NCBI RefSeq assembly: GCF_000223985.1
Contig: NZ_AFWV01000001.1
Coordinates: 186,001 to 250,000, forward strand
Reading direction: 5' to 3'
Origin: Thiocapsa marina 5811
Lineage (GTDB): Bacteria > Pseudomonadota > Gammaproteobacteria > Chromatiales > Chromatiaceae
DNA length: 64,000 nt
Positions 23,545 to 63,010 of this stretch are shown piece after piece. A program made the translations under genes and the position numbers. Within the stretch, counting starts at the first letter, position 1; the number at the start of each line of letters is the position of its first letter. The notes beneath the pieces were generated by a model that did not search any database, was not told where the DNA came from, and saw nothing but the letters and a program-made list of their open reading frames with translations.

Positions 23545-23735
23545 TAAACCGCCTCCAGAGCGAGATGCTCGGTTTCGAGTGAGCTCGACGTTTGGCGCAT
23601 CCGCGGCCCTTAGCGAGGACGCGGGTTAAAGTGATTCTTTTCTAATCTTTTTAACCGCTCCGACCGCAGCGGTCGTCAAGTCGACCGGAGCCGATCCCGT
23701 CCAAAAACATCGCATACCGCGCTTGGCGCGGTTTA
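23545..23735. repeat. CGCGGTTTA composite repeat, copy A (L-spacer-R)
   Basis: L unit 23545-23630 (starts TAAACCGC, ends GCGGGTTAA-like), AT-rich spacer 23631-23650, R unit 23651-23735 (ends GGCGCGGTTTA). It lies between mlaE and the cbiM stop and contains no gene. The L unit keeps the internal GAGCGAGATGCTC and TTTCGAGTGAGCTCGACG blocks shared with copies B and F; the R unit keeps GCCGATCCC and ACATCGCATACCGC. Confidence 0.9.
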
Positions 23736-23744
23736 GAGTCGTCC

Positions 23745-24398
23745 CTACAAGGTCGAGCGCTCGGCCGGCAGAAGGCGAGCGGGTAAAACCGCCGGGAGCA
23801 GCTCGGGACGCACGGTCAGGAGAAGCCGCAAGGCCGCAGCGGTAAGCGCTCCTTCCACGAGCATCACCGGGATCTGAACGATCAGGATCAGTTTGGCCGC
23901 CACGAGGAATTCGCTCCCGCTCAGCGCAAGTACTCCGGCCACCGACAACGCGGATACGCCGAACGACAAGGCACCGACCAGAAAGCCGGCAACGACCAAC
24001 GTCGCCGAGCGAGGCGAGCCGTCCAAGCGCGCCAAAAGCCGCTGCGCGAGCAGACCGATCACGACCGCCGGTAGAGCCAGATTCAGTGTATTGGCTCCGA
24101 TCACGGTCAAACCGCCAAACCCGAAAAAGGCCGCCTGTAAAAGCAGCCCGACCAAGATCGCGGGAAAGGCCGCCCAGCCGAGCAGCAACCCCATGAGTCC
24201 GGTCAGCATCAGATGGGCGCTCGCCGGACCGACCGGCAGATGGATCAAAGAGGCGACAAAAAAGACGGCCGTCAGAAGGCCGGCGCGCGGGATGGACTCG
24301 CTATCGAGGGCGCTCAACCCCCGAGCGACGCCGGCAACCGCGAGCATGGATGCGCCGATCAAAACCGGCGCACCGAGAACACCGTCGACGATGTGCAT
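23745..24398 (-). CDS. Energy-coupling-factor-type nickel/cobalt transporter component CbiM/NikM
   Basis: A 217-aa membrane protein with six to seven helices. The start at 24398 is fixed by the family's functional N-terminus, MHIVDGVL: CbiM/NikM proteins bind the metal through the free amino group and His2, so an upstream start would be non-functional. Later blocks PVGPASAHLMLTGLMGLLLGW and the substrate-core motif GGLTVIGANTLNLALPAVV (CbiM consensus G.N..NM..) support the family. NikR is encoded 1.1 kb away, which favours nickel as substrate. No CbiN, CbiQ or CbiO gene is visible in the window. A three-hairpin leader lies just upstream (24419-24483). Confidence 0.82.
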   Translation of the reverse strand: MHIVDGVLGAPVLIGASMLAVAGVARGLSALDSESIPRAGLLTAVFFVASLIHLPVGPASAHLMLTGLMGLLLGWAAFPAILVGLLLQAAFFGFGGLTVIGANTLNLALPAVVIGLLAQRLLARLDGSPRSATLVVAGFLVGALSFGVSALSVAGVLALSGSEFLVAAKLILIVQIPVMLVEGALTAAALRLLLTVRPELLPAVLPARLLPAERSTL

Positions 24399-24418
24399 AG
24401 CTGTTATCGATGTCCGGA

Positions 24419-24483
24419 CAAGGCCAAGGCGCGTAGTACCTTGGTGCAAACGGTAATACCCGAGAAGGTAGCACTCGGCCTTG
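24419..24483 (-). promoter_or_regulatory. Candidate structured leader (three-way junction) upstream of cbiM
   Basis: Three stems nest without gaps: P1 CAAGG/CCTTG (24419-24423 with 24479-24483), P3 CCAAGG/CCTTGG (24424-24429 with 24439-24444) and P2 CCGAG/CTCGG (24460-24464 with 24474-24478). It sits 21 nt before the cbiM start on the minus strand. It does not obviously match the cobalamin riboswitch. The pairing is read by eye; chance pairing in GC-rich DNA is possible. Confidence 0.35.
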
Positions 24484-24625
24484 CAGGCGTCTACCCGGGG
24501 CCGACGGCGTCGGTAAGTCCTGCCGGCATATATCCGGCGGGCACCGCTATTGGAGTCTCGGTCTCCGACCGGATATCTTTGCCGAGAGGATCAATGCGAG
24601 CTGATTCACCCTTCGGAGGCGAGCC

Positions 24626-25246
24626 ATGGACCAAAGCAACACGAGCCAAAACGAACAGAGACTGAACGAGCAGCGGATCATCGACGACCTGTTCGGCAAG
24701 CTGCGACAGGCCGAGCATCAAACCGGACCACGCGATCCGGCCGCGGAACAGCAGATCGCCGCGGCGCTCGAGCATCAGCCCGCAGCACCCTATTACATGG
24801 CCCAAGCGATTCTGGTCCAGGAGCGAGCCATCGAGACGCTCGGCCAACGGGTCCAGGATCTCGAGCAGGAGCTCGCGAGCCGGCCGGCCGGCGGCGGCTT
24901 CCTCGACAGCCTTTTCGGGGCACCGAGCTCCCGTGCGGGCGCCCCGGGCGCTCCGGCCGGCGGAGCCTTGGGCCGTGCGGTTGCGCCGAGCGGCATGGGC
25001 CTCGGCGGCATGCAACCCGGTCAAGCCCACCGGGCGGGCGGCGGTTTCCTGGGATCGGCACTGCAAACCGCGGTTGCGGTTGCAGGCGGTGTCATGATGG
25101 CCAACGTGCTGACCGGCCTCTTCGCCGCCGAGGAGGCCCAGGCGGCCGAGGAACCTGTCGAAGATCCGGGGCTGGATTCGGATTTCGACCCCAAGATGAT
25201 GGACGACGGCGATATGGGTGACTTCGACGGCTTCGATGACTTCTAA
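24626..25246 (+). CDS. DUF2076 domain protein
   Basis: A 206-aa protein with an N-terminal helical part of the DUF2076 type (RIIDDLFGKLRQAEHQTGPRDPAAEQQIAAAL...PYYMAQAILVQERAIE, residues 18-78) and a coiled coil VQDLEQELAS. A Gly/Pro/Ala-rich middle (85-140) carries a hydrophobic glycine segment (TAVAVAGGVMMANVLTGLF, about 150-170), and the tail is very acidic (DFDPKMMDDGDMGDFDGFDDF). Family members are described as periplasmic ligand-binding sensor-like proteins, but function is essentially unknown. GGAGG lies 7 nt before the ATG. The stop codon TAA is the first three bases of repeat copy B. Confidence 0.78.
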   Translation: MDQSNTSQNEQRLNEQRIIDDLFGKLRQAEHQTGPRDPAAEQQIAAALEHQPAAPYYMAQAILVQERAIETLGQRVQDLEQELASRPAGGGFLDSLFGAPSSRAGAPGAPAGGALGRAVAPSGMGLGGMQPGQAHRAGGGFLGSALQTAVAVAGGVMMANVLTGLFAAEEAQAAEEPVEDPGLDSDFDPKMMDDGDMGDFDGFDDF

Positions 25247-25519
25247 ACCGCGTCCAGAGCGAGATGTTCACTTTCGAGTGAGCTCGACGCTTGGTGTATC
25301 CACGATCCTCAGCGAGGACGCGGTTTAAAATAATAGAATACATTTAATGTCTTAAACCGCGCCGGCTCCAGCGGCCGTGAAGTCCGCCGGGGCCGATCCC
25401 ATCCAATAACATCGCATACCGCACTGGGCGCGGTTTAAACCGCGGCGTCTCCAGCGGCCGTCAAATCCGCCGGGCCGATCCCATCCGGAAACATCGCATA
25501 CCGCGCTCGGCGCGGTTTA
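25244..25519. repeat. CGCGGTTTA composite repeat, copy B (L-spacer-R-R)
   Basis: L unit 25244-25327, AT-rich spacer 25328-25352, R1 25353-25437 and a second R2 25436-25519, with R1 and R2 sharing the TTTAAAC junction. Each unit is 84-85 bp with ends TAAACCGCG and CGCGGTTTA; L ends are TAAACCGCGTCC/GGACGCGGTTTA (12-bp inverted), R ends TAAACCGCGCC/GGCGCGGTTTA. The L unit has the internal hairpin TCACTTTCGAGTGA. It spans the whole gap from the DUF2076 stop to 11 bp before nikR. Confidence 0.93.
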
Positions 25520-25530
25520 AGAGGCCCGAC

Positions 25531-25968
25531 ATGTCTTCTGTCGAGGAAAGCGTTCGCGAGGAAACCATCCGTTTCAGCGTCTCCCTGCCCCGCCCGTTGC
25601 TGGACGAGCTTGATCGACGCGTCGTCAAGAAGGGCTACGCCTCGCGCTCCGAGCTGGTGCGCGACCTGATCCGCGAGCGGATCGTCGAGGAAACCTGGGA
25701 GCGCGGCGACGTGGAGGTCGCGGGTGTGCTCACCATCGTCTACGACCATCATCAGCGCGAGCTCACCCAGCACATCCTGGACATTCAGCATCGCCAGTAC
25801 ATCCACGTCGTCGCAACGACGCACGTGCACATGGACCATCACAACTGTCTGGAGACCATCATCATTCGCGGCATGCCGGTCGAGATCGAGCGGCTGAGTT
25901 TGGAGATCGGGGGGTTGCGGGGCGTGCGGTTCTCCGAGTTGACGCGGGCATCGCGCGTCCAAAACTGA
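25531..25968 (+). CDS. nikR: Nickel-responsive transcriptional regulator NikR
   Basis: A 145-aa regulator. The ribbon-helix-helix DNA-binding domain occupies residues 10-52 ([20 protein letters not shown], then [14 protein letters not shown]) and the ACT-like metal domain residues 60-140. The high-affinity Ni ligands are conserved: His87, His98, His100 and Cys106 (motif [12 protein letters not shown]). In Ni-replete cells NikR represses nickel import genes, which fits the CbiM/NikM gene 1.1 kb away. Repeat copy B ends 11 bp before its ATG, and its TGA is the beginning of repeat copy C, so its promoter must lie in or before the repeat. Confidence 0.95.
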
Positions 25969-25975
25969 ACCGCGC

Positions 25976-26201
25976 TAAACCGCGTCCGGTGCTCTCGGAG
26001 ATGGTCGAGTCGATAGAGAGGTTAAAACACTCTTGAATCGCCGGAGTCGACGCGGTTTAGGATAAGAAAAACAATATTTTAAAATTCTTGAACCGCGTCG
26101 ACTCCGACTTCTTTGGGTCGGCCGAGGCAAGACGCAATCCGCGATGTTCGCATATCATTTCGGACGCGGTTCAATTCGCATATCACTCCGGACGCGGTTC
26201 A
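25976..26201. repeat. CGCGGTTTA composite repeat, copy C (diverged)
   Basis: L-like unit 25976-26059 (TAAACCGCGTCCGG...GACGCGGTTTA), AT-rich spacer 26060-26088, and a second unit starting TGAACCGCGTCGACTCC (26089), ending CGCGGTTCA at 26173 with a further partial end at 26193-26201. The termini have drifted to TGAACCGCG/CGCGGTTCA. An extra GAACCGCG half-site overlaps the nikR stop at 25967. The right end overlaps the last codons of the transglutaminase gene. Confidence 0.8.
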
Positions 26202-27085
26202 ACAGGTATGACGGCCAGGGTTTCTTCGAGCTCCGGCACCGATCCGTCGCTGCGGCAGGTCTGACGCAAGGGCTGCACGTCGCCTGCATCGCGCCCGACG
26301 GCAACGCGCATGTAGGTCGCATCGGCGAGCAGTCCCATCGCCGGATCGACACCGCGCCAGCCGCCGCCCGGGATCAGCACCTCGGCCCAGTGGTGGAGCC
26401 TCTGCTCGCGCGGCTGGGTGCCCGGCGGATCTTCGTCGTCCGGGTCGAAATAGCTCGCATCCAGATACCCGGAGACGAATCGCGCGGGAACCGACCACTG
26501 CCGCATCAGGGCGATCAAGAGGTGCGCCAGGTCGGCGGCACAGCCGCGCCCTGCGTCGAACAGCGCCGGCAATGCCATGACCGGGCGTGCGACCTCCGGG
26601 TCGAACGGCGTCACCGACTGAATCCAGGCACTCGCCTCCTGCACCTGATCCAGGAGCGGTCGATCCTCGCGCAGGATCGGCACCCGGTGTCCGCAGATCT
26701 CCTCGGGCAGCGCGGGGGTCAGTGGCCCTTGATGCAGGACGAAGTCCCAGAGGCGCGGGGCTTGATGGAGGGCGTCGTCGATCCAGGCGCGCTCGCGTGC
26801 CTGCGCGACCACCGGGAAGTCGAAAGGGTTGCTGCGAAGGGTCTCCACCTCGGCCGTCATGGTGAAGGCGAGCTCCCGGTGCGCTCCCATCACCGCGAAG
26901 TGATGCGAGAGGTTGCCGAACCCGTCCCGACAGGCGGAAACGCCCGCGTCGGGTGCCACGGAGAGCTGGATCTGCAGGAGCGACTGACTCTCGTCGTCCC
27001 AAGGCGCCAGGCGGATCTGGACGTGGTGCTCGCGTGCCGGGGCCGCGAAATGGATCCGACAAACCCGCTCGATCTGATATCTCAC
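26183..27085 (-). CDS. Transglutaminase-like cysteine protease family protein
   Basis: A 300-aa protein: an N-terminal beta domain typical of bacterial transglutaminases (residues 1-80) is followed by the transglutaminase core with Cys182 (GRGCAADLAHLLIALMR), His232 (LHHWAEVLIPGGGW) and Asp247 (GVDPAMG) as the papain-like triad. It is the third gene of an ATP-grasp / alpha-E / transglutaminase operon. The GTG start at 27085 overlaps the alpha-E stop (GTGA). The last six codons (VEPRPE-stop) are written in repeat copy C sequence, so the native C-terminus was probably replaced by the repeat. Substrate unknown. Confidence 0.88.
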   Translation of the reverse strand: MRYQIERVCRIHFAAPAREHHVQIRLAPWDDESQSLLQIQLSVAPDAGVSACRDGFGNLSHHFAVMGAHRELAFTMTAEVETLRSNPFDFPVVAQARERAWIDDALHQAPRLWDFVLHQGPLTPALPEEICGHRVPILREDRPLLDQVQEASAWIQSVTPFDPEVARPVMALPALFDAGRGCAADLAHLLIALMRQWSVPARFVSGYLDASYFDPDDEDPPGTQPREQRLHHWAEVLIPGGGWRGVDPAMGLLADATYMRVAVGRDAGDVQPLRQTCRSDGSVPELEETLAVIPVEPRPE

Positions 27086-28047
27086 TGAGCATCATCCCCC
27101 AGGTGGGCCTCGAAATAGTCGCTCTGCAGCGCCGTGCCGAAATCGGCCAAGAGCCCCAGGAAGTCGTCGAGATACTCGTGCAGGCCCAGATCCAGAATCC
27201 CCTGGGGCGTTGCGCCGTCGAGATGACGACGCAGTGCGGCAAGACGCTCGGGCATCGCTCCGTCGGGCAAGCTCCCGATGCGTCCGAGCGCGCGTTCCAT
27301 ACCCTCCACACAGTAGGCGAGCGAACGCGGGAAATCCGTGTCGAGCACCACGAACTCCACCACGTCGATCGGGCGGATGCCGCCTTGATACTTGCGGCGA
27401 TACGCCTCGAAACCGGAGAGCGACTTGAGCAGTGCACCCCATTGGTAGTAGTCCAACGGCGAGCCGACGAGCTTCAGATCCGGCAGCAGCAAGTGGTAGC
27501 GCGTATCCAGGATGCGCGCGGTCATGTCGGCGCGCTCCTGGAGACTGCCGAGCGCCATGAAGCCGTAGGCCTGGCCCCGCATCATGGTGCTTTGGGTCAG
27601 ACCGAAGAAGGCCGCGACCTGGCGATGAATGAAGGCGTAGAACTCGGCCGCACGCCAGGGCTGCAAGGTCGTCTTCAGATGCTTGTCGGCCGAGAGCCAC
27701 AGCTCGTTGAGCGCCTCCCACATCTCGCTCGAGATGCGATCGCGCACCACCCGCGCATTCTCGCGGGCAAGCTTGAGACTGAGCAGGAGCGAGCCCGGAT
27801 TGTTGCGGTCCTGGGTGAGCAGATGGATGACGCGCTGCACCGTCACGCGCCCGTCGGGATGCAGCTCCTCGTACAGCTCGTCTGCACCCATGATGGTAAG
27901 CAAGGGACGCCACTGCATCTCCTCGGTCGCACCCTCGTCGGCCTCGAGCATGTAGACGACATTGATGTCCAGCACGCGCGCGGTGTTGTCCGCGCGCTCC
28001 AGGTGCCGGGTCATCCAGTACAGCGACTCCGCAATACGACTCAACAT
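27082..28047 (-). CDS. Alpha-E domain protein (DUF403)
   Basis: A 321-aa all-helical protein recognised by its start MLSRIAESLYWMTRHLERADNTARVLD, the strongly conserved DUF403/alpha-E opening, and by GSLQERADMTARILDTRYH in the centre. It is always encoded with circularly permuted ATP-grasp and transglutaminase-like proteins, as here, and is thought to act with them in synthesis or cleavage of a small peptide or peptide tag. No catalytic residues are known. The ATG overlaps the ATP-grasp stop by one base (TAATG), and the downstream gene overlaps by 4 bp. Confidence 0.92.
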   Translation of the reverse strand: MLSRIAESLYWMTRHLERADNTARVLDINVVYMLEADEGATEEMQWRPLLTIMGADELYEELHPDGRVTVQRVIHLLTQDRNNPGSLLLSLKLARENARVVRDRISSEMWEALNELWLSADKHLKTTLQPWRAAEFYAFIHRQVAAFFGLTQSTMMRGQAYGFMALGSLQERADMTARILDTRYHLLLPDLKLVGSPLDYYQWGALLKSLSGFEAYRRKYQGGIRPIDVVEFVVLDTDFPRSLAYCVEGMERALGRIGSLPDGAMPERLAALRRHLDGATPQGILDLGLHEYLDDFLGLLADFGTALQSDYFEAHLGDDAQ

Positions 28048-29546
28048 TAGTCGGCCAGCACCCAGGTGTCTTTACTGCCCCCGCCCTGCGAGGAGTTCAC
28101 GACCAAGGATCCCTTGGTCATGGCGACCCGGGTCAAGCCGCCCGGGACGACCTCGATATCGCTGCCGTAGATGCTGAAGGGACGCAGATCCAGATGGCGC
28201 GACTCCAGCTCGCCGTCGAGATAGCAGATGTGGCGCGAGAGCTGGATCACAGGCTGGGCGATGTAGTTGCGCGGATTCTCCTCGATCTTGCGGGCAAACT
28301 CGGCGCGCTGCGCGGTGGTGGACGAGGGCCCCATCAGCATCCCGTAGCCGCCGGATTCAGCGACCGCCTTGATGACCATTTTCTCCATGTTGTCGAGCAC
28401 ATACATGCGGTCCTGGTGGTCGGTCATCTGATAGGTCGGGACACTCGGCAGGATGGGGGATTCGCCGAGGTAGTAACGGATGATGTCCGGGACATAGGCA
28501 TAGACCGCCTTGTCGTCGGCGATGCCCGCCCCCGGTGCATTGGCCAAGGCGACGTTGCCGGCCCGCCAGGCGTTGATGATCCCGGCCACGCCCAGCTCGG
28601 AGTCCGAGCGAAACACCAGGGGATCGAGGAAGTCGTCGTCGACGCGCCGATAGACCACATCGACCTGACGCAGACCCTGCGTGGTCTTGAGATAGACCTT
28701 GTCGTTCTTGCAGACCAGATCCCGCCCCTCGGCCAGCTCCACGCCCATCTCCTTGGCGAGAAAGGTGTGCTCGAAATAGGCCGAGTTGAAGATGCCGGGG
28801 GTGAGCACGACGATGGTCGCGTCGTTCGCGCCGCGCGGCGAGAGATGACGCAGGGCCTGCAGCAGCAGCGCCGGATAGTGCTCGACGCGGCGGACCCGAT
28901 AGCGGGCGAAGAATTCGGGCAGGATGCGCCGCTCCACGATCCGGTTCTCGATCATGTAGGACACACCGGACGGGGTGCGCAGGTTGTCCTCGAGGACCAG
29001 ATAGCGACCGTCCTCGTCGCGGATCAGATCGACCCCGCTGATGTGGGTGTAGATATCGTGCGGCGGGGTGATGTCCATGATCTCGCGCCGAAAATCCTTG
29101 CCCCGGTAGATCAGCTCCGGAGGCACCACACCGTCCTTGAGGATCCGCTGACCGTGATAGAGGTCCTTCAGGAAGAGATTCAGGGCGCGGATGCGCTGCT
29201 TGAGTCCGGCCTCGATCTGCGCCCACTCGATCGCCGTGATGATGCGCGGGAGGATGTCGAAGGGCCAGACCCGCTCGATCCCCTCCTCGTCGTTGGAGTA
29301 GACGGTGAAGGTCACCCCTTCGGTGTGCAATGTCAGATGGGCATCGCGCGCCTTGGCCCCGAGGATCTGCTGCCCCGTGGTCTGGATGTGCTCCCACATC
29401 GGCAGGTAGTGATCGCGCGGCCGGAAGTCGTCCTGATAGAACTCGTGGTAGGCCATCGCTTGTCCCGCGCGTTGCATCTGGATCTGGCCGGCACCGCCGG
29501 ATTGGAATTGTTTAAGCATCTGCGTGAACCCCACAACATGGCCCAT
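28047..29546 (-). CDS. Circularly permuted type 2 ATP-grasp protein (DUF404/DUF407)
   Basis: A 499-aa ATP-grasp amidoligase-like enzyme. Recognisable blocks are AYHEFYQDDFRPRDHY near the start, PFDILPRIITAIEW, GVDLIRDEDGRYLVLEDNLRTPSGVSYMIENR (ATP/Mg-binding glutamates and asparagine), VLTPGIFNSAYFEHTFLAKEMGVELAEGRDL and the C-terminal PRNYIAQPVIQLSRHICY...HLDLRPFSIYG. Such enzymes are predicted to form amide bonds between amino acids. The first ~30 residues are variable and M10 or M32 are alternative starts. It is the first gene of a three-gene overlapping operon. Confidence 0.92.
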   Translation of the reverse strand: MGHVVGFTQMLKQFQSGGAGQIQMQRAGQAMAYHEFYQDDFRPRDHYLPMWEHIQTTGQQILGAKARDAHLTLHTEGVTFTVYSNDEEGIERVWPFDILPRIITAIEWAQIEAGLKQRIRALNLFLKDLYHGQRILKDGVVPPELIYRGKDFRREIMDITPPHDIYTHISGVDLIRDEDGRYLVLEDNLRTPSGVSYMIENRIVERRILPEFFARYRVRRVEHYPALLLQALRHLSPRGANDATIVVLTPGIFNSAYFEHTFLAKEMGVELAEGRDLVCKNDKVYLKTTQGLRQVDVVYRRVDDDFLDPLVFRSDSELGVAGIINAWRAGNVALANAPGAGIADDKAVYAYVPDIIRYYLGESPILPSVPTYQMTDHQDRMYVLDNMEKMVIKAVAESGGYGMLMGPSSTTAQRAEFARKIEENPRNYIAQPVIQLSRHICYLDGELESRHLDLRPFSIYGSDIEVVPGGLTRVAMTKGSLVVNSSQGGGSKDTWVLAD

Positions 29547-29733
29547 AACGGAGAAAACACGTCAAGAAACGCGCCAAGATCGCGCTCGTCGCCACGCGAC
29601 GCCAACCGATTCATCGATAAGGACTTTTGCGAAGCGCAGATTGCCGTCGCAAAATGATGCCGCACTATGGGAGTGCACCACCACCGGAAGGGAACACAAA
29701 ACCAGCCACCGATGCACGAAGATCGAGCGCACC

Positions 29734-30378
29734 CTACTCAAACCGCTGGCGGAGCGTTTTCAGACCCCGTGCCCGCGTCAGCAACACCACCTCGTCACCG
29801 ATCTGCAGATGCATCTGCGGATCGGCGAATTTGAGCTCCTCGCCGTTGCGATAGACGCAGATGGCCCGAGCGACATCCGGAATGGCCAACGCCTCGAGCG
29901 TCGTCGCCGACGCCTCGTCGACCTTGAAGGAAAAGATCCGGGTGTCGCCGCGCAGGATGTCGGAGATGGCGATGATGTCCTGCCCCTCGGCCATGTCGGC
30001 GAGATAGCGGCCGACGGTGTGCATCGGCACCAGCGAGTCGGCCAGACCCAGCTCGGCGCAGATGTGCTCCAGGTCGGGATCCTCGATCTTGGTCACGACC
30101 CTTCGGTAACCGAGGGAACGCGCCACCAGGCTCGCGATGATGTTGGACTGATCGTCGTGGGTCAGGCAGAAGAGCAGATCGGTATTCTCGGGATCGGCCT
30201 CGCGCAGGATCGCCGGCCGGGTCCCGTCGCCATGGAGGAAACCCACGTCGAGCTCGTCGCGAAACCGCTCGATCGTCGCCGGATCGCGCTCGACGATGAC
30301 GACCTCGTGACCGCGCTCCACGAGCATCCGCCCGGTAAGCACGGCGAGGGTTCCGCTGCCGATGAAGACGAATCGCAT
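29734..30378 (-). CDS. trkA: Potassium uptake regulatory protein TrkA (single RCK unit)
   Basis: A 214-aa cytoplasmic RCK protein. The TrkA-N Rossmann domain (1-125) begins MRFVFIGSGTLAVLTGRMLV and has the acidic end-of-strand-2 residue in VVIVERDP; the third glycine of GxGxxG is replaced by Ala. The TrkA-C domain (about 140-214) includes LKFADPQMHLQIGDEVVLLT. It gates the TrkH channel by nucleotide binding. E. coli TrkA has two such units in tandem; this one has a single unit, like KtrA. It is separated from trkH by 363 bp of repeats. Confidence 0.9.
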   Translation of the reverse strand: MRFVFIGSGTLAVLTGRMLVERGHEVVIVERDPATIERFRDELDVGFLHGDGTRPAILREADPENTDLLFCLTHDDQSNIIASLVARSLGYRRVVTKIEDPDLEHICAELGLADSLVPMHTVGRYLADMAEGQDIIAISDILRGDTRIFSFKVDEASATTLEALAIPDVARAICVYRNGEELKFADPQMHLQIGDEVVLLTRARGLKTLRQRFE

Positions 30379-30412
30379 GTCGTGTCCCTCGTTGCGGGGA
30401 AAGCCTCCGGCT

Positions 30413-30490
30413 GCCAGCCCCAGCTCCCAGCTCCCAGCTCCCAGCTCCCAGCCTCCAGCCTCCAGCCTCCAGCCTCCAGCCTCCAGCCTT
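30413..30490. repeat. Heptanucleotide tandem repeat (CCAGCTC then CCAGCCT units)
   Basis: About ten 7-bp units: four CCAGCTC followed by five to six CCAGCCT, upstream of trkA. No gene. Same periodicity as the other heptamer loci. Confidence 0.9.
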
Positions 30491-30548
30491 TGGCCTTTAC
30501 TTTAGTCGATTTCCGGACCTCGGCATCCCGACGACGCATACGATTCGG

Positions 30549-30734
30549 CCGGAAGTGATGCCAACGGTCGTCGCGAAGCGGCGACACCTCCCGGGATAGA
30601 CGACTTGCAGTCGTCCTCTTCAGTCGGCGCGACGCCCCTGAGGTTCGGATGGAGCGCAACCCCGCCGGTACTCAGGACGCTTGGAAGATGACGACTGCAA
30701 GTCGTCGATCCCGGGGAACGTCGCTTCGCGACGC
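30549..30734. repeat. Large inverted repeat with GACGACTTGCAGTCGTC hairpins between trkH and trkA
   Basis: Left arm (30549-30623) contains GTCGTCGCGAAGCGGCGAC, CCCGGGAT and GACGACTTGCAGTCGTC; right arm (30684-30734) is its near reverse complement (GACGACTGCAAGTCGTC, CCCGGGGA, GTCGCTTCGCGAC). A third, single copy of the arm occurs at 47367-47452. The stretch encodes no gene and can fold into a long cruciform or mRNA hairpin. Confidence 0.85.
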
Positions 30735-30741
30735 CCGCCGC

Positions 30742-32175: not shown

Positions 32176-32178
32176 GCC

Positions 32179-33399: not shown

Positions 33400-33439
33400 G
33401 CTTGATCCGCCTCCGGTCGGGACTCCGGATCACGAGGAA

Positions 33440-46166: not shown

Positions 46167-46928
46167 ATGCGCAGAGAATCCAGTACCTCGTTCCACCTTA
46201 TTTTGCGTGCTCAGCAAAATAAGGTGGAACGAGGTACTAGCATCTCCGTCGTTATCCCGACCCTCGACGAGGCCAAGGACATCGTCTCGCTCCTTGCGAC
46301 ACTAGCGCCCGTCCGCGCGGTCGGCGGCGAGATCCTGGTCGTCGACGGGGACAGTCCGGACGGCACGGCCGGTCTCGCCGCACCCTATGCGGACCAGGTT
46401 CTGAGCGCGCCGCGCGGCCGTGCCGTCCAGATGAACGCCGGCGCCGCGGCAGCGCGCGGCGATCTCCTCGTCTTCCTGCACGCGGACACGCGAGCGCCGA
46501 TCGATACCCTGCTTCGGCTTCCCGATCTGCTCGCACGCAGCGGACGATCCTGGGGCCGCTTCGACGTGCGGATCGAGGGCCGCCATCCACTGCTCCCGCT
46601 CGTCGCTTGGAGCATGAACCAACGCTCGCGTCTTACCGGGATCGCCACCGGAGATCAGACGATCTTCGTTGACCGAGCCCTGTTCGAGCAGGTCGGCGGC
46701 TATCCCGAGATCGCCTTGATGGAAGACATCGCACTTTCGCGTCGACTCAAACGCCATAGCCCACCGCTGCGTGTGCGCGATCGCGTCGTCACCTCGGGGC
46801 GACGCTGGGAGAGCAAGGGTGTCCTTCGCACGATCCTACTGATGTGGCGGTTGCGACTGGCCTATGCACTCGGCGTCCATCCGGACAGGCTTTCGCACGT
46901 CTACGGATATCGCTCGCGGCCGGATTGA
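46167..46928 (+). CDS. Family 2 glycosyltransferase, TIGR04283-like, with repeat-derived start
   Basis: A GT-A fold transferase: SVVIPTLDEAKDIVSLLATL, EILVVDGDSPDGTAGLA, RAVQMNAGAAAARGDLLVFLHADT, ATGDQTIFVDRALFEQVGGYPEIALMEDIALSRRLKR and a C-terminal RWESKGVLRTILLMWRLRLAYALG, all typical of the TIGR04283 group. The family normally starts a few residues before SVVIPTL. Here those positions are occupied by a 24-9-24 palindrome (46182-46238), so the only upstream ATG (46167, 253 aa) reads through it; a GTG at 46223 inside the right arm (QN-K-V-ERGTS) is an alternative. Divergent from galE. Acceptor unknown. Confidence 0.85.
   Translation: MRRESSTSFHLILRAQQNKVERGTSISVVIPTLDEAKDIVSLLATLAPVRAVGGEILVVDGDSPDGTAGLAAPYADQVLSAPRGRAVQMNAGAAAARGDLLVFLHADTRAPIDTLLRLPDLLARSGRSWGRFDVRIEGRHPLLPLVAWSMNQRSRLTGIATGDQTIFVDRALFEQVGGYPEIALMEDIALSRRLKRHSPPLRVRDRVVTSGRRWESKGVLRTILLMWRLRLAYALGVHPDRLSHVYGYRSRPD
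46182..46238. repeat. Perfect palindrome, 24-bp arms and 9-bp loop
   Basis: Left arm 46182-46205 (AGTACCTCG...TTATTTTG) and right arm 46215-46238 are exact reverse complements, separated by CGTGCTCAG. It sits across the start region of the glycosyltransferase gene. The sequence is more AT-rich than its surroundings. It could be an inserted palindromic element. Confidence 0.95.
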
Positions 46929-47325: not shown

Positions 47326-47366
47326 CCGAGAGATCGACTTCGGCGGCCTCGTTCATCCGACCGACC

Positions 47367-47452
47367 GGAAGCGGCGCCGGCGATCGTCGCGAAGCGGCAA
47401 CATCCCGGAGTCCCCGGACCCCGGGATCGACGACTTGCAGTCATCCTCTTCC
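47367..47452. repeat. Copy of the GACGACTTGCAGTCGTC repeat family
   Basis: Contains CCGGAAGCGG, GATCGTCGCGAAGCGGCAAC, CCCCGGGATC and GACGACTTGCAGTCATCCTC in the same order as the left arm at 30549-30623, with a ~15-bp insertion in the middle. It lies between the coiled-coil gene and the metallopeptidase gene. Confidence 0.8.
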
Positions 47453-47549
47453 GCCGCTGATTCGGCTGACGGCAGTGAGATCCCTGTCCGGGTCTCCGGG
47501 CACGGACCTCGCGGCATCATCGTATTAAAGGTCTGGAACTCCCGCCATC

Positions 47550-50217: not shown

Positions 50218-50295
50218 GATCCAAGGCGCGCCCGGCGATCCATTCCGGACGACTGCAGGGCCGGCGGATCTCACCCGACCGATGCGATCGGTCTG

Positions 50296-50346
50296 CCGAG
50301 GCCGATCCCGTCCAAGAACATCGCATACCGCGCCGGGCGCGGTTTA
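50296..50346. repeat. CGCGGTTTA repeat, truncated R unit (copy D)
   Basis: Only the right ~50 bp of an R unit are present: GCCGATCCCGTCCA, ACATCGCATACCGC and GGGCGCGGTTTA. It ends 3 bp before the stop codon of the PH-like gene and lies between convergent genes. Confidence 0.8.
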
Positions 50347-51727: not shown

Positions 51728-52906
51728 ATGGGATCCGCCCGCCGCCAGATCGGCATCGCCCTCGCCTTGCCGATCGGCATCGCACTGCTCCTCGCCGGAT
51801 GCAATCAGACGCCTGCAGGCAACGCTGCGCCCGCGGCACCCCCGCCGCCCGAGGTCGGGACGGTCACGGTCGTCGCCCGCCCGACCACGCTGACGACCGA
51901 GCTCCCCGGCCGCACCGTACCTTATCGGATCGCCGAGGTGCGACCGCGCGTCAGCGGCCTCATCCAGGATCGACTCTTTACGGAAGGCGGCGAGATCAGC
52001 GCGGGTCAAGTGCTCTATCAGATCGACCCCGCCGTCTACCAGTCGGCCTACGACAGCGCCGAGGCCGCGCTGGCACGCTCGCAGGCGACCTTGGATCGGG
52101 CGCGACTGAAGGCCGATCGCTATGCGCTTCTCGCAAAGTCCAAGGCGGTCAGTCAGGAGGACAACGACGACACCCAGGCGGCGCTCAAGGAGGCCGCTGC
52201 CAGTGTCGCCGTCGATCAGGCGGCCTTGGAGCGCGCGCAGATCGACCTCGCCTATAGCCGGGTCGAGTCACCGATCGCCGGGCGGATCGGCCGTTCGACC
52301 GTCACTCAAGGTGCGTTGGTGACGGCCAACCAGGCCGAAGCGCTGGCGACCGTGCAGCAGATCGATCCCATTTACGTCGACCTCACCCAATCCAGCACCC
52401 AGCTGCTCAAGCTGCGGCGCGCCTTGGCCGACGGTCGCCTGGAGACGCCAGACGGCGAGCAGGCGAAGGTGACGCTTATCTTGGAGGACGGCAGGGTCCA
52501 CCCGCATGCGGGACGCCTGGAATCCTCCGAGGTCACGGTCGACCAGGGGACCGGCACGGTCACGTTGCGGGCCACCATCCCGAACCCCGAGCAAGAGCTT
52601 CTGCCGGGGATGTTCGTCCGCGCCCGGGTGGAGGAAGGCATCCGCCCGGACGCCATCCTGGTTCCGCAACAGGGTGTCCAGCACGATCGTCGCGGCAACC
52701 CGATCGCCTTGGTCGTCAACGACGAGGGCACGGTGGAGGAGCGCAAGATCGAGACGACGCGCACCATCGGCGACCGATGGCTGGTGGACGCCGGGCTTGA
52801 GCCGGGCGATCGCGTCATCGTCGAGGGCAGCCAAAAGGCGCGACCGGGAACGCAAGTACGGGTGATGGACCTTGGCGGTCAGCCGGGCTTTGCGGCGGTG
52901 GATTGA
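51728..52906 (+). CDS. RND efflux periplasmic adaptor (AcrA-like lipoprotein)
   Basis: A 392-aa membrane fusion protein. The ATG at 51728 has GAGG at 7 nt and gives a lipoprotein signal with lipobox LLAGC (Cys25). The barrel-sandwich/lipoyl domain ([30 protein letters not shown]), the alpha-helical hairpin ([28 protein letters not shown]), the second lipoyl half ([20 protein letters not shown]) and the beta-barrel with [14 protein letters not shown] are in the usual order. It links the inner-membrane pump encoded next to an outer-membrane channel that is not in this window. Confidence 0.95.
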
Positions 52907-52985
52907 GCCGCCAGCCGCCAGCCGCCAGCCGCCAGCCGCCAGCCGCCAGCCGCCAGCCGCCAGCCGCCAGCCGCCAGCCGCCAGC
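52906..52985. repeat. Heptanucleotide tandem repeat (AGCCGCC), 11 copies
   Basis: Eleven perfect or near-perfect AGCCGCC units start at the stop codon of the adaptor gene. They are followed by a smaller heptamer array at 53105-53133 (GCTGGAG/GCTGGAA units). The two arrays fill much of the 259-bp gap before the pump gene. Confidence 0.95.
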
Positions 52986-53104
52986 GGGGAGGCGCCGATC
53001 GGTCCCCTAAAGTTCCGAGCGGAACACCAATCGACCAAGCAGCCTCGCAACGCCAGCGACAACCAAGCAAAAGCGACATCGCAAGCTAAAGGCCGGATGC
53101 TGAA

Positions 53105-53133
53105 AGCTGGAGGCTGGAGGCTGGAAGCTGGCA
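53105..53133. repeat. Heptanucleotide tandem repeat (GCTGGAG units)
   Basis: Four 7-bp units (GCTGGAG, GCTGGAG, GCTGGAA, GCTGGC) directly before the RND permease start region. Confidence 0.85.
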
Positions 53134-53165
53134 ACCCACACTCCCGAACCAAGGACTCCAACCCC

Positions 53166-56315: not shown

Positions 56316-56387
56316 GTTGTGCCGAGCCGTGCGAGGCACATCAAACCACTTACGCCTCAAGTCTTCGGCAAACCGGCGCAGAACTTT

Positions 56388-56467
<80 letters not shown>

Positions 56468-56483
56468 AGCAGGGCTGTCGGCC

Positions 56484-59723
<3,240 letters not shown>

Positions 59724-59725
59724 CC

Positions 59726-59919
59726 TAAACCGCGTCCGGAGCGACACTGCGTCATTTTCATTTTGCGTTTGGCCTTGGAGATGTCCTCGATCTCGGTGAG
59801 ACGCGGTTTAGAATTTAATATTTTTTAATACCTTAAACCGCGCCAGCTCCGACAGCCGTCGGAGCTGGCGCGGCCAATCCATTCCAATAAATGACGCATA
59901 CCGCACCGGGCGCGGTTTA
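59726..59919. repeat. CGCGGTTTA composite repeat, copy E (L-spacer-R)
   Basis: L unit 59726-59810 (TAAACCGCGTCCGG...GACGCGGTTTA), AT-rich spacer 59811-59833, R unit 59834-59919 (TAAACCGCGCCAGCTCC...GGGCGCGGTTTA). It lies between imuB and dnaE2 inside the SOS mutagenesis operon; its left end begins 3 bp from the dnaE2 ATG. The R unit has an extra internal inverted repeat (GCGCCAGCTCCGAC / GTCGGAGCTGGCGC). Confidence 0.92.
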
Positions 59920-59961
59920 GATCCGGCACTTGAACGGCCCCTGGAGAGCGTCCCGCCAGGA

Positions 59962-61446
59962 TCACTCCACCTGACCATGCACGAACCAGCCGCGACGCAC
60001 CCGATCGTAGAAGACCCACAAGAGCTCGCCTTTACGGGTTTCGGCAAAGTGATACTCCCGGTGCAATGCACGTACCCACCAGCCGCCGGCGACCACATAG
60101 GGGCCCCAGACCCGCACCACCGGTCCCTGCTCCAAGCCGTGGAGCATCCAGCCGTCCGGCTCATGGCGTGGGCGCGGCGGCAAGGGGATCGGACGCCTGT
60201 AGAGACGACGCACCAGACGGCGCTGCAGACGCGTGCGCGGATGCGCCGGCTCCAGTCGGGACAAGGGCTCCCACGCGAAGCTGTTCTCGGGCAGATGACC
60301 CGAGCTCAGCCGCGCCCGCACCACCGACTGCTCGCCGAATGCTGCCCGCACGCGCGCCAAGGCACGATTGGCCGCCTCCAGGTCGCGGCGCGGCCGGACG
60401 GCGAGCAGCTCGAGCTGGCGCTGCTCGGGGTTGACGGCACGGACGAGCAGATGCAGCTCCTCGACACCGTCCGGCAGGCGTGCCGCCGACAGACGCAGAC
60501 GGATCAGCTCCAGGATCTGTCGGGCATCCAGGGTTGGGGCAGCCGGGCGGATGCGCTCCTTGTGCTCGCCCAGACGCTCGAAGCGAAACAGCAGCCGCAG
60601 CTCTTCGAGGACCTGACCGCGCCCGGCAAGCTCCTCCAGAAGCGGCGGCAGCCGCGTCTCGATCAGAGCCATCAGGCGCTCGACATCGGTCTCGGGCCGA
60701 TCGAGGATCAGTCGAGTCGTCACCGGCTCGACCGGGTGCTCGGGCTGCAGCGGGAGATTCAGCTCGCCCGAGGCCATCCGGTGCAGATCGAAGGCGGCCT
60801 TCCCGTAGCGCCGACGGATGCCCTCGGACGGCAACCGGAGAAAGGCACCGAGGCTGTGCACGCCGAGCTTGGCGAGCGCGTCTCGTGTGCCGGGCGCGAT
60901 CGCCAACCGCTCCAGGGGCACCTCCTGCAGAGCAGCCTGCTCCTCGGCCGCATCGTGCAGGACACGCACGCCTTGTCCGGATCTGGCGAGCGCATAGGTC
61001 GCGAAGCGGCGAAAGCCGACGACCACGACGGCGCTCAAACCCATCGCCGAGAGTCCCGTCTCGATCCCCGCGGCCCAGGCGTCGAGCGACCCGTAGAGCG
61101 GCTCGAGCCCGGACGCATCGAGCCAGAAGACACCGGGCTCTTCCGCGGATGGCTCGACATGCGGGCTTTGCTCGCGCAGCCGGCGGGAGACGGCGAGGAC
61201 AGCCCGATCGATCTGCGCCTTGGGCACCGGGGCGGCGCGCAGATCCCCGCTCAGCGACAGGGCCGCAGCAAAGGACATGCCCGAGAGGATGCGTGCGGCA
61301 CGCGCGGACGCATTGACCCACAAGACGATGCCCCGCGGCTGATCGCTGTCGACGACGGCGACCGGATGCCCCCGCCACTCGGGATGCTGCCGCAGCAGGA
61401 GTTGAAGCGGGAAGGCCGGCAGATCAAGACAGGCCATCCGGTCCAT
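59962..61446 (-). CDS. imuB: Y-family polymerase-like protein ImuB
   Basis: A 494-aa protein of the DinB/UmuC fold used to recruit DnaE2 to the sliding clamp. From the ATG at 61446 (GGAG at about 8 nt) it reads MDRMACLDLPAFPLQLLLRQ, then the palm/finger region (PRGIVLWVNASARAARILSGM), thumb HhH-like segment (LAIAPGTRDALAKLGVHSLGAFLRLPSEGIRRRYG) and little-finger part. The DDE catalytic triad of active Y-family polymerases is not evident, as is usual for ImuB. The C-terminus ends with the DUF6504-type block (WVFYDRVRRGWFVHGQVE). It overlaps imuA by 23 bp; the gap to dnaE2 is 238 bp and filled by repeat copy E. Confidence 0.93.
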   Translation of the reverse strand: MDRMACLDLPAFPLQLLLRQHPEWRGHPVAVVDSDQPRGIVLWVNASARAARILSGMSFAAALSLSGDLRAAPVPKAQIDRAVLAVSRRLREQSPHVEPSAEEPGVFWLDASGLEPLYGSLDAWAAGIETGLSAMGLSAVVVVGFRRFATYALARSGQGVRVLHDAAEEQAALQEVPLERLAIAPGTRDALAKLGVHSLGAFLRLPSEGIRRRYGKAAFDLHRMASGELNLPLQPEHPVEPVTTRLILDRPETDVERLMALIETRLPPLLEELAGRGQVLEELRLLFRFERLGEHKERIRPAAPTLDARQILELIRLRLSAARLPDGVEELHLLVRAVNPEQRQLELLAVRPRRDLEAANRALARVRAAFGEQSVVRARLSSGHLPENSFAWEPLSRLEPAHPRTRLQRRLVRRLYRRPIPLPPRPRHEPDGWMLHGLEQGPVVRVWGPYVVAGGWWVRALHREYHFAETRKGELLWVFYDRVRRGWFVHGQVE

Positions 61447-62032
61447 GACAGAGCTCCGCGTAGGTCCGGCCCGGTCCCTGGCGCTTGTCCTTGAGGACGA
61501 GCGTCTCGCAGCGGAACAGCGGCGGCGCACGACCGGTGCGCGTCGCATCGGCGCGCAACGAGATCAGCGAGCCCAGCGACGGACGCTCCCGCCCCTTGCG
61601 CGTCAGACACAGGAGCGCCGTCTCGTGCTTCTTCGCGAGCGCGGCGAGGCGTGTCTGCGCGGCCAGCGGGAGGTCGTCGTCGGTGCCCAGATCGAGCACG
61701 ACAAGACCGAAGGCACCCGAGCGCAACAGCAGGTCGGCCGCCCGCGCGGCCTCGAGCGCACCCTGTGCCCACACGACCGCCAAGGCACTCAGATCGATCC
61801 CGACCGCCGCGACATCCGGCGGATAAAAGCCGCTGTCGCGCCCCGTCACCCAGACCACGGGCTCGTCGCACTGCTGAGCCTCGGCCACCAGCCCCATGGC
61901 CAGCGTCAGCGCCGCAGTCGCCTCCCCGCCCGAGATCTCGGCAAAGCGACCGCGAAAGGCAGCCAGCCCCCATGAGACGGGCGCCCGGCTCGGCTTGAGC
62001 CCGCGTTGAAGATCCGAAAAGGCCGCCTTCAT
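61424..62032 (-). CDS. imuA: Translesion synthesis accessory protein ImuA
   Basis: A 202-aa RecA/SulA-like protein of the imuA-imuB-dnaE2 cassette. Characteristic phrases are GLAAFRGRFAEISGGEATAALTLAMGLVAEAQ, WVTGRDSGFYPPDVAAVGID and LAALAKKHETALLCLTRKGRE near the C-terminal end. It lacks a canonical Walker A, as ImuA proteins often do. It supports recruitment of the mutagenic polymerases. A heptamer repeat (62056-62111) separates it from lexA. Confidence 0.9.
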   Translation of the reverse strand: MKAAFSDLQRGLKPSRAPVSWGLAAFRGRFAEISGGEATAALTLAMGLVAEAQQCDEPVVWVTGRDSGFYPPDVAAVGIDLSALAVVWAQGALEAARAADLLLRSGAFGLVVLDLGTDDDLPLAAQTRLAALAKKHETALLCLTRKGRERPSLGSLISLRADATRTGRAPPLFRCETLVLKDKRQGPGRTYAELCHGPDGLS

Positions 62033-62055
62033 CGAGATGCTCCGATCGTTTGACG

Positions 62056-62111
62056 TTAGCTGTTAGCTGATGGCTGATAGCTGGAGGCTGGAGGCTGGTG
62101 GCCGGCGGCTG
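62056..62111. repeat. Heptanucleotide tandem repeat (xxxGCTG units) between lexA and imuA
   Basis: Roughly eight 7-bp units: TTAGCTG twice, ATGGCTG, ATAGCTG, GAGGCTG twice, then GTGGCCG and GCGGCTG. The array ends 13 bp before the lexA stop and begins 23 bp upstream of the imuA ATG. Confidence 0.85.
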
Positions 62112-62124
62112 AAAGCCCCCTCTC

Positions 62125-62760
62125 TCAATCGAGATAACGCCGCACCTCGATCACCCGCCCCAGCACCTGGAGCGCATCCGGATCCGGCGTCATGACCTCG
62201 TAATCGGGGTTTGCCGGATGCAGCTCGATCCGGTCGCCGCGCCGCCGCAGACGCTTGATCGTCGCCTCCTCGCCCACCAGGGCAACGACGATCGCGCCGT
62301 CTTCGACACTGGGCAGACGCCACACGATGACGATGTCGCCGGGCAGGATGCCGGCGTCGCGCATGCTCTCGCCGCGCACACGCAGACCGAACAGCTCCTC
62401 GTTCGCGCCGACGCGGTCCGACTGCACCGGGAGATAGCCTTCGAGGTCCTCGACCGCCAACCCGAAGGCGCCGGCCGCGACGCGCCCGAGTAAGGGGACC
62501 AAGCGCGGCGGCGCGATCCGGTCTGCGCCGGAGAGGAGCACCGCTGCGTCCGCAAGCCGATAGCCCCGTGCCCGACCCGACTGCTTCTCGAGGCGCCCTT
62601 CGGACACCAGCGCCTCGAGATGCGCGCGCGCGGTCTGCACGGAGCGAAAACCGAACGCCTCCTGAACTTCCCGAACGGTCGGCGGTTGGCCGGCCAGGAG
62701 CCGTTCGCGCATGAGCTGGAACACCTGCTCGCGCGTCTGTCCGGTCGGTGTTCGCCCCAT
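62125..62760 (-). CDS. lexA: LexA-type SOS repressor
   Basis: A 211-aa repressor of the S24 family. The winged-helix N-terminal domain (1-70) includes TVREVQEAFGFRSVQTARAHLEALVSEGRL; the autocleavage bond is in RVAAGAF (Ala96-Gly97), with catalytic Ser132 (RGESMRDAGI) and Lys169 (EATIKRL). Self-cleavage is stimulated by RecA-ssDNA. It heads the lexA-imuA-imuB-dnaE2 group and is therefore probably the copy dedicated to this cassette (LexA2-like); a second lexA may exist elsewhere. The ATG at 62760 is preferred; a GTG one codon upstream is possible. Confidence 0.94.
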   Translation of the reverse strand: MGRTPTGQTREQVFQLMRERLLAGQPPTVREVQEAFGFRSVQTARAHLEALVSEGRLEKQSGRARGYRLADAAVLLSGADRIAPPRLVPLLGRVAAGAFGLAVEDLEGYLPVQSDRVGANEELFGLRVRGESMRDAGILPGDIVIVWRLPSVEDGAIVVALVGEEATIKRLRRRGDRIELHPANPDYEVMTPDPDALQVLGRVIEVRRYLD

Positions 62761-62798
62761 CACATCACCCTCGCTCGGCCGGGGAATCCCATGAACGC

Positions 62799-62819
62799 GT
62801 TATAGCATACATTTGTATG
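62799..62819 (-). promoter_or_regulatory. Candidate LexA operator and -10 element of the SOS cassette
   Basis: CATACATTTGTATG (62806-62819) is an inverted repeat (CATACA-NN-TGTATG) placed directly upstream of a -10-like TATAAC (62799-62804), about 46 bp before lexA. No similar site is seen before imuA or dnaE2, so the cassette may be transcribed from this single promoter. The motif differs from the E. coli CTGT-N8-ACAG box. It ends 2 bp before repeat copy F. Confidence 0.55.
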
Positions 62820-62820
62820 T

Positions 62821-63010
62821 TAAACCGCGCCATCGCAGTATGCGATATTTTTGGATGGGATCGGCCCCGGCAGACTTGACGACCGCCGGAGTCGGCGCGG
62901 TTTAAATTATTAAAAATATAAATAATTAAACCGCGTCCCCGCTAAGGGCCATGGATGCATCAAACGTCGAGCCTTCCCGAAAGTGAGCATCTCGCTCCGG
63001 ACGCGGTTTA
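62821..63010. repeat. CGCGGTTTA composite repeat, copy F (R-spacer-L orientation)
   Basis: R unit 62821-62904 (reverse orientation), AT-rich palindromic spacer 62905-62926, L unit 62927-63010 in reverse orientation. It fills the gap between the lexA promoter and the CusA-type gene, and its right end (CGCGGTTTA, 63002-63010) contains the TAA stop of the minus-strand pump gene. Units align with copies A and B over their length. Confidence 0.93.

What the first reader, a model, noticed from the sequence alone, without database searches (positions are those of the whole stretch)
23545..63010. Family of ~85-bp TAAACCGCG...CGCGGTTTA units arranged as L-spacer-R composites
Five loci (23545-23735, 25244-25519, 25976-26201, 59726-59919, 62821-63010) and one truncated copy (50296-50346) share the same design. 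An L unit of 84-86 bp has 12-bp inverted ends TAAACCGCGTCC/GGACGCGGTTTA and an internal hairpin TCACTTTCGAGTGA. A 20-28-bp AT-rich spacer follows, then an R unit of 84-86 bp with ends TAAACCGCGCC/GGCGCGGTTTA and conserved GCCGATCCC and ACATCGCATACCGC blocks. Unit length is almost constant, copies occur in both orientations, and two R units can be joined at a shared TTTAAAC. This looks like a dedicated interspersed element, either a MITE or a structured RNA/protein-binding element, rather than random palindromes. I do not recognise it as a named family.
Basis: seen in the sequence. Interest (0 to 1): 0.72.

Follow-up and report, generated by a model that had tools for sequence, protein, structure and literature searches.

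The report
Twin-arm mobile repeat in stop codons
Purple sulfur bacteria of the Thiocapsa group carry hundreds of copies of a roughly 190-base mobile DNA element that very often lands exactly in the stop codon of a gene and supplies a new stop codon, so it spreads without breaking the protein.

Summary
The window lies in a Thiocapsa genome with 313 exact-ended units and none for the reversed control. L, an AT-rich spacer (22-23 bp in 73 of 102 composites) and R form one ~190 bp element: 69 of 85 close unit pairs are L then R in one orientation.

Best reading: a non-autonomous, MITE-like mobile element of Chromatiaceae with two inverted arms, mobilised in trans by an unidentified enzyme. Between Thiocapsa species, differences of 188-192 bp occur at seven sites and single-arm differences at three. 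Outer flanks are pyrimidine...purine in 266 of 270 ends.

New here: in 78 of 199 clusters from five genomes the element's first TAA/TGA is the stop codon of the neighbouring called gene (about 13% expected from available YTAR sites). In element-free orthologues the stop sits at the same codon in 8 of 10 distinct gene ends. Loci from a second, partly overlapping set of species give 55 of 105.

No transposase with convincing matching ends was found. Pneumococcal BOX repeats also supply stop codons (PMC3049150), so this is a new variant of a known kind.

The parts
23545..23628 (+). L arm (class L1), ends slightly decayed
23629..23650 (+). AT-rich spacer of this composite
   Evidence: read from the sequence
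23651..23735 (+). R arm with decayed inner end (TTAACCGCTCC...GGCGCGGTTTA)
25244..25327 (+). L arm; its first TAA (25244-25246) is the stop codon of the DUF2076 gene 24626-25246
25328..25352 (+). AT-rich spacer, 25 bp
25353..25437 (+). R arm of the same composite
25436..25519 (+). older R arm, present alone in G116 and G114; the composite was inserted at its left TA
25966..25975 (+). vestigial TGAACCGCGC end; its TGA is the stop codon of nikR (25531-25968)
25976..26059 (+). first arm of an older composite, at the same place in eight Thiocapsa genomes
26060..26088 (+). AT-rich spacer, 29 bp
26089..26173 (+). second arm, TGAACC...GGTTCA type
26174..26201 (+). 28-bp tandem copy of the arm's outer end, shared with G109; its terminal TGA (minus strand, 26201-26199) is the stop codon of ORF 26199-27437
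50290..50346 (+). truncated R arm (outer part only)
59726..59810 (+). L arm (class L2)
59811..59833 (+). AT-rich spacer, 23 bp
59834..59919 (+). R arm (class R2, with an inner 16-bp hairpin)
62821..62904 (-). R arm
62905..62926 (-). AT-rich spacer, 22 bp
62927..63010 (-). L arm; its TAA (63010-63008, minus strand) is the stop codon of an AcrB-family ORF (63008-63952); empty site seen in G111

Best explanation
A non-autonomous mobile element of about 190 bp, MITE-like, found so far only in Chromatiaceae. It has two inverted arms of 84-86 bp joined by an AT-rich spacer of mostly 22-23 bp. Each arm has an outer end (TRAACCGCG followed by blocks that both arms share as an inverted repeat) and an inner end (TRAACCGCG followed by other bases). 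Shown: the composite appears or is missing as one unit at exact boundaries; its flanks are a pyrimidine on the left and a purine on the right; it sits outside called genes, next to gene 3' ends, and in about 40% of clusters its own TAA or TGA is the stop codon of the neighbour; where an element-free orthologue could be compared, the stop was already at that codon in 8 of 10 cases. Inferred: an unidentified enzyme acting in trans recognises the ends and opens DNA at short Y..R sites; because TAA/TAG/TGA after a pyrimidine fits that rule and the element's ends start with TRA on both strands, insertion at a stop codon is harmless and is kept. Lone arms arise mainly by decay or deletion of one half.
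For: 313 exact units against 0. 28 of 210 genomes of the order positive, 16 of them with 29 or more, 0-582 per genome in the genus; reversed control hit in 1 of 210. 69 of 85 pairs L+R+. The composite of 62821-63010 matches in 9 of 11 genomes of the genus; the paralogues listed are 83-91% alike and mostly full length. Differences of 188-192 bp in 13 comparisons at seven sites; 8 of 13 candidate empty sites leave exactly 2 bp (two leave 1, three leave 17-28). Flank rule in 266 of 270 ends of 135 composites, equally with and without an element-made stop (76 of 78 and 80 of 82 ends). Stop codons: 78 of 199 clusters; offset -3 holds 81 gene ends, next largest 13; same codon in 21 of 25 comparisons, 8 of 10 distinct ends; second set 55 of 105. 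Outer-end similarity of L and R.
Against: No enzyme with convincing ends was found near 95 transposase or resolvase loci, and G116 holds 339 units but no DDE_3, DDE_Tnp_1, resolvase or rve match. Copies are mostly 83-91% alike (nearest neighbours in the G000 sample: median 0.87-0.88, up to 0.96 for L and 0.99 for R), so much of the family is not recent. The target duplication that defines most MITEs is not shown: the two bases at empty sites are TA at only one of six loci whose flanks align well (TG, TA, CG, CC, TC/TT, TC); a seventh site with ragged flanks was left out, and the right flank of the CG site is itself a repeat. Single arms also differ between genomes at three sites. Gene calls are from my own hexamer script, not an annotation.
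Confidence: 0.8

Rival explanations
1. An ordinary IS630/Tc1-type MITE: it inserts at TA inside YTAR and duplicates TA; stop codons TAA/TAG are simply frequent YTAR sites that tolerate insertion.
For: TA at both ends of most units; Y-TA-R context resembles IS630, whose preference for TA in CTAG I saw only as a reference title in PMC2170065; one well-aligned empty site is TA; two element-element junctions share TA.
Against: TGAACC...GGTTCA units obey the same flank rule (134 of 140 ends) but cannot be TA duplications. The former stop was TGA in 5 of 8 orthologous ends, although only 79 of 491 TAA/TAG stops are TGA in a relative (p about 0.004). Stop-codon share is about 3 times the YTAR expectation. 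None of 20 DDE_3 loci has these ends and G116 has no DDE_3 match.
Confidence: 0.35
2. A REPIN-like element moved by a RAYT (Y1 tyrosine transposase): two inverted palindromic units with a spacer.
For: Inverted twin-arm design, 3'-end location and high copy number recall REP dimers; Y1_Tnp matches occur in all 11 Thiocapsa genomes and are the only one of five searched families present in G116; PMC3733652 describes TIR families of RAYT-like genes, many arranged as dimers (section 16).
Against: None of 30 Y1 loci has a unit within 900 bp of the domain, or ends on both sides (30 of about 100 matches were cut out). Genomes with no exact-ended units (G110, G115, G118) also have Y1 matches. Arms are 84-86 bp, not 20-40 bp tagged hairpins.
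Confidence: 0.15
3. A structured RNA or 3'-UTR element (terminator or mRNA stabiliser) kept by selection rather than a mobile element.
For: Six window arms fold better than shuffles (z -1.9 to -5.9). End positions change in complementary pairs across units (position 2: 36 changed on both sides and still paired; 7.9 changed on both sides expected). Enrichment between convergent genes (54 of 169 clusters against 185 of 1180 intergenic gaps). 41 orthologous comparisons show no length difference.
Against: Internal pairs of L classes do not covary, those of R classes hardly. Symmetric end changes are also expected for inverted repeats bound by a protein. Copy number varies from 0 to 582 within the genus and exact empty sites exist.
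Confidence: 0.15

Closest known systems
Pneumococcal BOX elements (PMC3049150; sections 3 and 9 read, passages from others)
   Same: Composite small interspersed repeats; a passage gives over-representation between convergent genes; 58 CDSs overlap BOX and in 36 the repeat encodes the stop codon without strong evidence of truncation.
   Different: boxA-boxB(n)-boxC design of variable length; unrelated host; the sections read report no exact replacement at the orthologous stop codon and no Y..R rule.
RUP of S. pneumoniae and other IS630-linked MITEs (PMC2229807, passages read)
   Same: About 100 bp, inverted repeats, TA at the ends, intergenic, non-coding.
   Different: RUP is one unit and its ends resemble a resident IS630; here there are two arms and no matching transposase was found.
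CIR repeats of Caulobacter (PMC2229807, table and passage)
   Same: 5' and 3' sections are modelled as independent stem-loops with a linker; intergenic.
   Different: CIR carry a GANTC methylation motif; the passages say nothing of a stop-codon habit.
REPIN/BIME and TIR dimers linked to RAYT (PMC3733652: abstract, section 16 and passages read)
   Same: Inverted pairs close together, predominantly downstream of coding regions, high copy.
   Different: REP units are 20-40 bp with GTAG or CGTC tags; here arms are 84-86 bp and no inspected Y1 gene is flanked by them.

Membership tests
MITE (bacterial, non-autonomous transposon) | short, non-coding, repeated, with terminal inverted repeats | tested here: met
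MITE (bacterial, non-autonomous transposon) | presence/absence at exact boundaries in relatives | tested here: met
MITE (bacterial, non-autonomous transposon) | target-site duplication | tested here: inconclusive
   2 bp remain at empty sites, TA at only 1 of 6 well-aligned loci
MITE (bacterial, non-autonomous transposon) | autonomous partner with the same ends | tested here: not met
   95 inspected loci of four families (20 PF13358, 30 PF01797, 30 PF01609, 15 PF00239): ends on both sides in one PF01609 locus (L236) and one PF00239 locus (L361, 2.5 kb apart), each end with one mismatch and taken as chance. PF00665 loci were not cut out; other families were not searched
IS630/Tc1-mariner MITE | insertion at TA with TA duplicated | tested here: inconclusive
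   Y-TA-R context met in TA-type units; TG-type units and TGA stops speak against it
IS630/Tc1-mariner MITE | resident DDE_3 transposase | tested here: not met
   met in G000, G111 and G117 but without these ends; not met in G116, with 339 units and 0 DDE_3 matches at 91% completeness
REPIN / REP-RAYT | RAYT gene flanked by the repeat | tested here: not met
   0 of 30 Y1_Tnp loci; about 100 matches exist
REPIN / REP-RAYT | 20-40 bp hairpin with unpaired GTAG or CGTC tag | tested here: not met
   arms 84-86 bp with a 9-12 bp closing stem
Rfam RNA family | match at gathering score | tested here: not met
   window 23000-27000: two hits, both below gathering; other loci were not scanned

The most novel reading that the evidence does not exclude
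Insertion is aimed at gene ends: the machinery recognises stop-codon contexts (or DNA opened at terminating genes) and swaps two target bases for the element's own TA or TG/CA ends, i.e. transposition by two-base replacement rather than target duplication, making the stop codon a dedicated safe harbour for a bacterial mobile element.
Probability: 0.25. Interest if true: 0.85.

Novelty: new variant of a known kind. Interest (0 to 1): 0.58.

Why it matters
If right, about 4% of the genes called in the sampled Thiocapsa sequence (81 of 1873) end in a stop codon donated by one mobile element. It gives a natural experiment on how a mobile element can avoid harming its host, on whether stop-codon sites are aimed at or only tolerated, and on what such 3' ends do to transcript ends. 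The missing enzyme and the apparent two-base replacement are testable questions.

Tried and rejected
Autonomous partner: long-range pairs of orphan ends in the held DNA (31 pairs, none convincing); DDE_3, Y1 and DDE_Tnp_1 and resolvase loci; rve matches were found but their DNA was not cut out. Units 1.3 kb from several Y1 genes (L201, L205, L207, L217, L219, and single ends in L211) look like one orthologous place; I read only L219, where the unit lies beyond a prfB-like gene (prfB named from reading the ORF, sameness inferred from distance). L+...R+ at long range with a gene between: four listed, three being the same place with a second repeat inserted in the spacer, one crossing different composites. 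Integron attC sites were considered from recall and rejected because the GTTRRRY core does not fit (not tested with a model). Phage, plasmid and viral collections: no match. Class-wide: 1 of 369 genomes, the own one (3 of the others are of the same family). Literature: no Chromatiaceae repeat of this kind among the listings, which cover open-licence PMC papers only. In one search, 95 papers hold one of the end strings; 20 were listed, none with a title on these bacteria, and none was opened.

Weak points: the p-value treats orthologous clusters as independent; per-genome values run from 1.4e-3 to 6e-7. Well-aligned empty sites are few because flanks diverge. In one search, 8 comparisons were dropped because the alignment did not reach the junction and 64 because the relative has the element. 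An earlier run gave 19 of 23 comparisons at the same codon in 15 ends; with a looser element filter, new gene calls and G112 added gave 21 of 25 in 10 distinct ends. The TGA test (5 of 8) has small numbers and includes one TG-type element. In one search, Thiobaca (6 of 18, p 0.05) and Lamprocystis (1 of 3, p 0.12) are weak on their own, the gene model was trained on Thiocapsa, and the Thiocapsa group includes KS1 and DSM 217, so it is not wholly independent. One search counted one place three times; the distinct count is. Several pooled sets include 23 loci (L116-L138) of the scan whose titles were not listed, and orthologous copies.
Full report
What is there. The window is contig C62:186001-250000 of a 5.59 Mb genome with 313 exact-ended units and none for the reversed pattern. 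Genus relatives include contigs whose lengths equal those of Thiocapsa KS1 and T. roseopersicina DSM 217, so I take the host to be a Thiocapsa. In 450 kb including the window, 67 hits with at most one mismatch per end have lengths 76-98, of which 59 are 84-86 bp; a scrambled control gave 0.

Anatomy. Units fall into two arms, L (classes L1-L3, mostly 84-85 bp) and R (R1 mostly 85, R2 mostly 86), plus 36 of 269 units with other interiors, 28 of them 84-86 bp. Of 85 close pairs, 69 are L+ then R+. Over 102 composites the spacer is 22-23 bp in 73 and 84% AT; the 48 spacers of 23 bp give AAATtttATATTTTTTAATAtcT. The outer ends of L and R (R read on its other strand) share TAAACCGCG followed by similar blocks (GCG, ATGCG, TTT); the inner ends share less. 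The composite is therefore an inverted design, outer-inner-spacer-inner-outer. Lone units are often not alone: 34 of 86 distinct ones have an AT-rich stretch at the inner side, often followed by a decayed second arm, and 0 of 86 at the outer side.

Two end types. Besides TAAACC...GGTTTA there are units with TGAACC...GGTTCA. Position 2 deviates on both ends in 37 units where 7.9 are expected, with 36 keeping the pair; position 5 in 13 (12 paired, 1.4 expected); position 6 in 6 (0.6 expected) (360 distinct units found with up to two mismatches per end, where scrambled controls gave 10-54 hits). Inside the L classes pairs are kept no more often than independent columns predict; in R1 a few inner pairs exceed it (66 against 59 and 85 against 79) and in R2 one (30 against 24). 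Six arms of the window fold better than shuffles (z from -1.9 to -5.9).

It moves as a whole. At the nikR upstream site, G117, G111, G109, G112 and G113 have no element, G116 and G114 one R arm, and G000 that R arm plus a whole L-spacer-R at its left TA. Comparing 450-480 kb each of G000, G117, G111, G109 and G112, 80 kb of G113 and short loci of five others, length differences at tightly aligned sites are 0 in 41 comparisons and 188-192 bp in 13, at seven sites. A further four comparisons at the nikR downstream site against G118 give 195-198 bp with 2 bp left, but with 11-18 unaligned bases, and two more give 184 and 186. Differences of 82-86 bp are 6 comparisons at three sites: the R arm of G116 and G114, and two lone L arms. 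One 108-bp difference is a spacer plus L arm beside an identical R. In one search, of 13 candidate empty sites 8 leave exactly 2 bp, two leave 1 and three leave 17-28.

Target. In 135 composites the base on the left is C or T in 135 and the base on the right A or G in 131; background before TA is A 28%, C 24%, G 34%, T 14%. TG/CA-type units follow the same rule in 134 of 140 ends. The two bases present at well-aligned empty sites are TG, TA, CG, CC, TC/TT and TC; a seventh site (position 144909 of the joined G111 stretch) has ragged flanks and was left out. A plain TA duplication would leave TA; base changes in the relatives could explain some, so the mode of insertion stays open.

Stop codons. 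Using a hexamer gene caller written for this purpose, 19 of 44 clusters in G000, 15 of 49 in G117, 18 of 55 in G111, 14 of 25 in G109 and 12 of 26 in G112 have a terminal TAA or TGA that is the in-frame stop of a called gene: 78 of 199 clusters, 81 gene ends among 1873 called genes. The offset from gene ends peaks sharply there (81, next 13). YTAR sites open to insertion outside genes or in stops are stops in 13.4% (where 67 of 175 clusters made a stop). When a relative lacks the element, its gene stops at the same codon in 21 of 25 comparisons, 8 of 10 distinct ends; in the other two the relative's stop is 13 codons on, or absent in the 19 codons read. The relative's stop is TGA in 5, TAG in 2, TAA in 1. 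Element-free orthologous TAA/TAG stops are TGA in a relative in 79 of 491 stop-stop pairs, which makes 5 of 8 unlikely (p 0.004) if only TA sites were used. Loci fetched from a scan of other genomes (80 of 103 stretches, L036-L115) give 42 of 76 in Thiocapsa and unnamed Chromatiaceae bins, 6 of 8 in Thiocystis, 6 of 18 in Thiobaca and 1 of 3 in Lamprocystis. These loci were found by their units and include KS1 and DSM 217, so the share, not the count, is the result, and it is not wholly independent. In the window, stops of ORFs 24626-25246, 25531-25968, 26199-27437 and 63008-63952 are made by element ends; the first, second and fourth are DUF2076, NikR and AcrB-family genes. ORF 26199-27437 had no Pfam match.

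Place in the genome. 5 of 175 clusters overlap a called gene by more than 20 bp; contexts are tandem 98, convergent 54, divergent 17, against 797, 185 and 198 intergenic gaps.

Spread. 28 of 210 genomes of the order, all in one family, have units (12 of them only 1-3); the reversed control hit 1 genome; within the genus 8 of 11 are positive. In the class sample 1 of 369, the own genome. None in viral contigs, plasmids or phages. The composite of window 62821-63010 matches in 9 of 11 genomes of the genus; the paralogues listed are 83-91% alike and most are full length; G110 has 6 weaker matches although it has no exact-ended unit.

What it is. The anatomy and exact boundaries are those of a non-autonomous mobile element. 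The mobiliser is unknown: no convincing ends around 20 DDE_3, 30 Y1, 30 DDE_Tnp_1 and 15 resolvase loci, and G116, with 339 units, lacks matches to four of the five families searched, having only Y1 matches. IS630-family ISY100 inserts at TA and duplicates it (PMC2170065, abstract and passages), which fits the TA-type ends but not all data here.

Comparison with the known. Small repeats that supply stop codons are on record: BOX elements encode the stop of 36 genes in one pneumococcal genome, with no strong evidence for truncation (PMC3049150, section 9). REP-like repeats lie downstream of coding regions (PMC3733652, abstract). CIR elements have two stem-loops with a linker (PMC2229807, passages). 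The present family differs in sequence, host, twin 84-86 bp arms, the strict Y..R flank and the finding at orthologous genes that the element took over the existing stop codon.

Verdict. Real, mobile, family-specific; new variant of a known kind. The stop-codon habit is well supported; whether it is aimed or merely tolerated, and how two target bases are replaced, is not settled.

Noticed in passing
L001 1610-1735 (G000 C33), also the G111 orthologue of C62:126899: A second repeat (GTGACACCCGCTCTGCGGTGTCACGC...CTGGCGCTCTGCGCCA) is inserted inside the spacer of a composite and recurs in the G111 sequence.
   Followed up: no
window 26147-26202: A 28-bp tandem duplication of an arm's outer end, present in G000 and G109 but not in the other relatives compared.
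   Followed up: partly
window 30415-30498, 52892-53003, 62059-62119: Arrays of 7-bp units related to CAGCCTC/GCTGGAG, possibly another slippage-prone repeat.
   Followed up: no
window 30581-30724 and 47362-47456: A 41-bp inverted repeat around GACGACTTGCAGTCGTC with a second copy 17 kb away.
   Followed up: no
window 46174-46246 and 56379-56477: Two further inverted repeats with short loops (91% and 74% complementary).
   Followed up: no
G113: Listed at 10.4 Mb while its contig C1 equals Thiocapsa KS1 in length; a match at position 5.18 Mb of contig C2 suggests a mixed or doubled assembly.
   Followed up: no
window 25966; L016 8155 and L034 12154: A direct 10-bp TGAACCGCGC precedes several units, as if a younger end replaced an older one.
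   Followed up: partly
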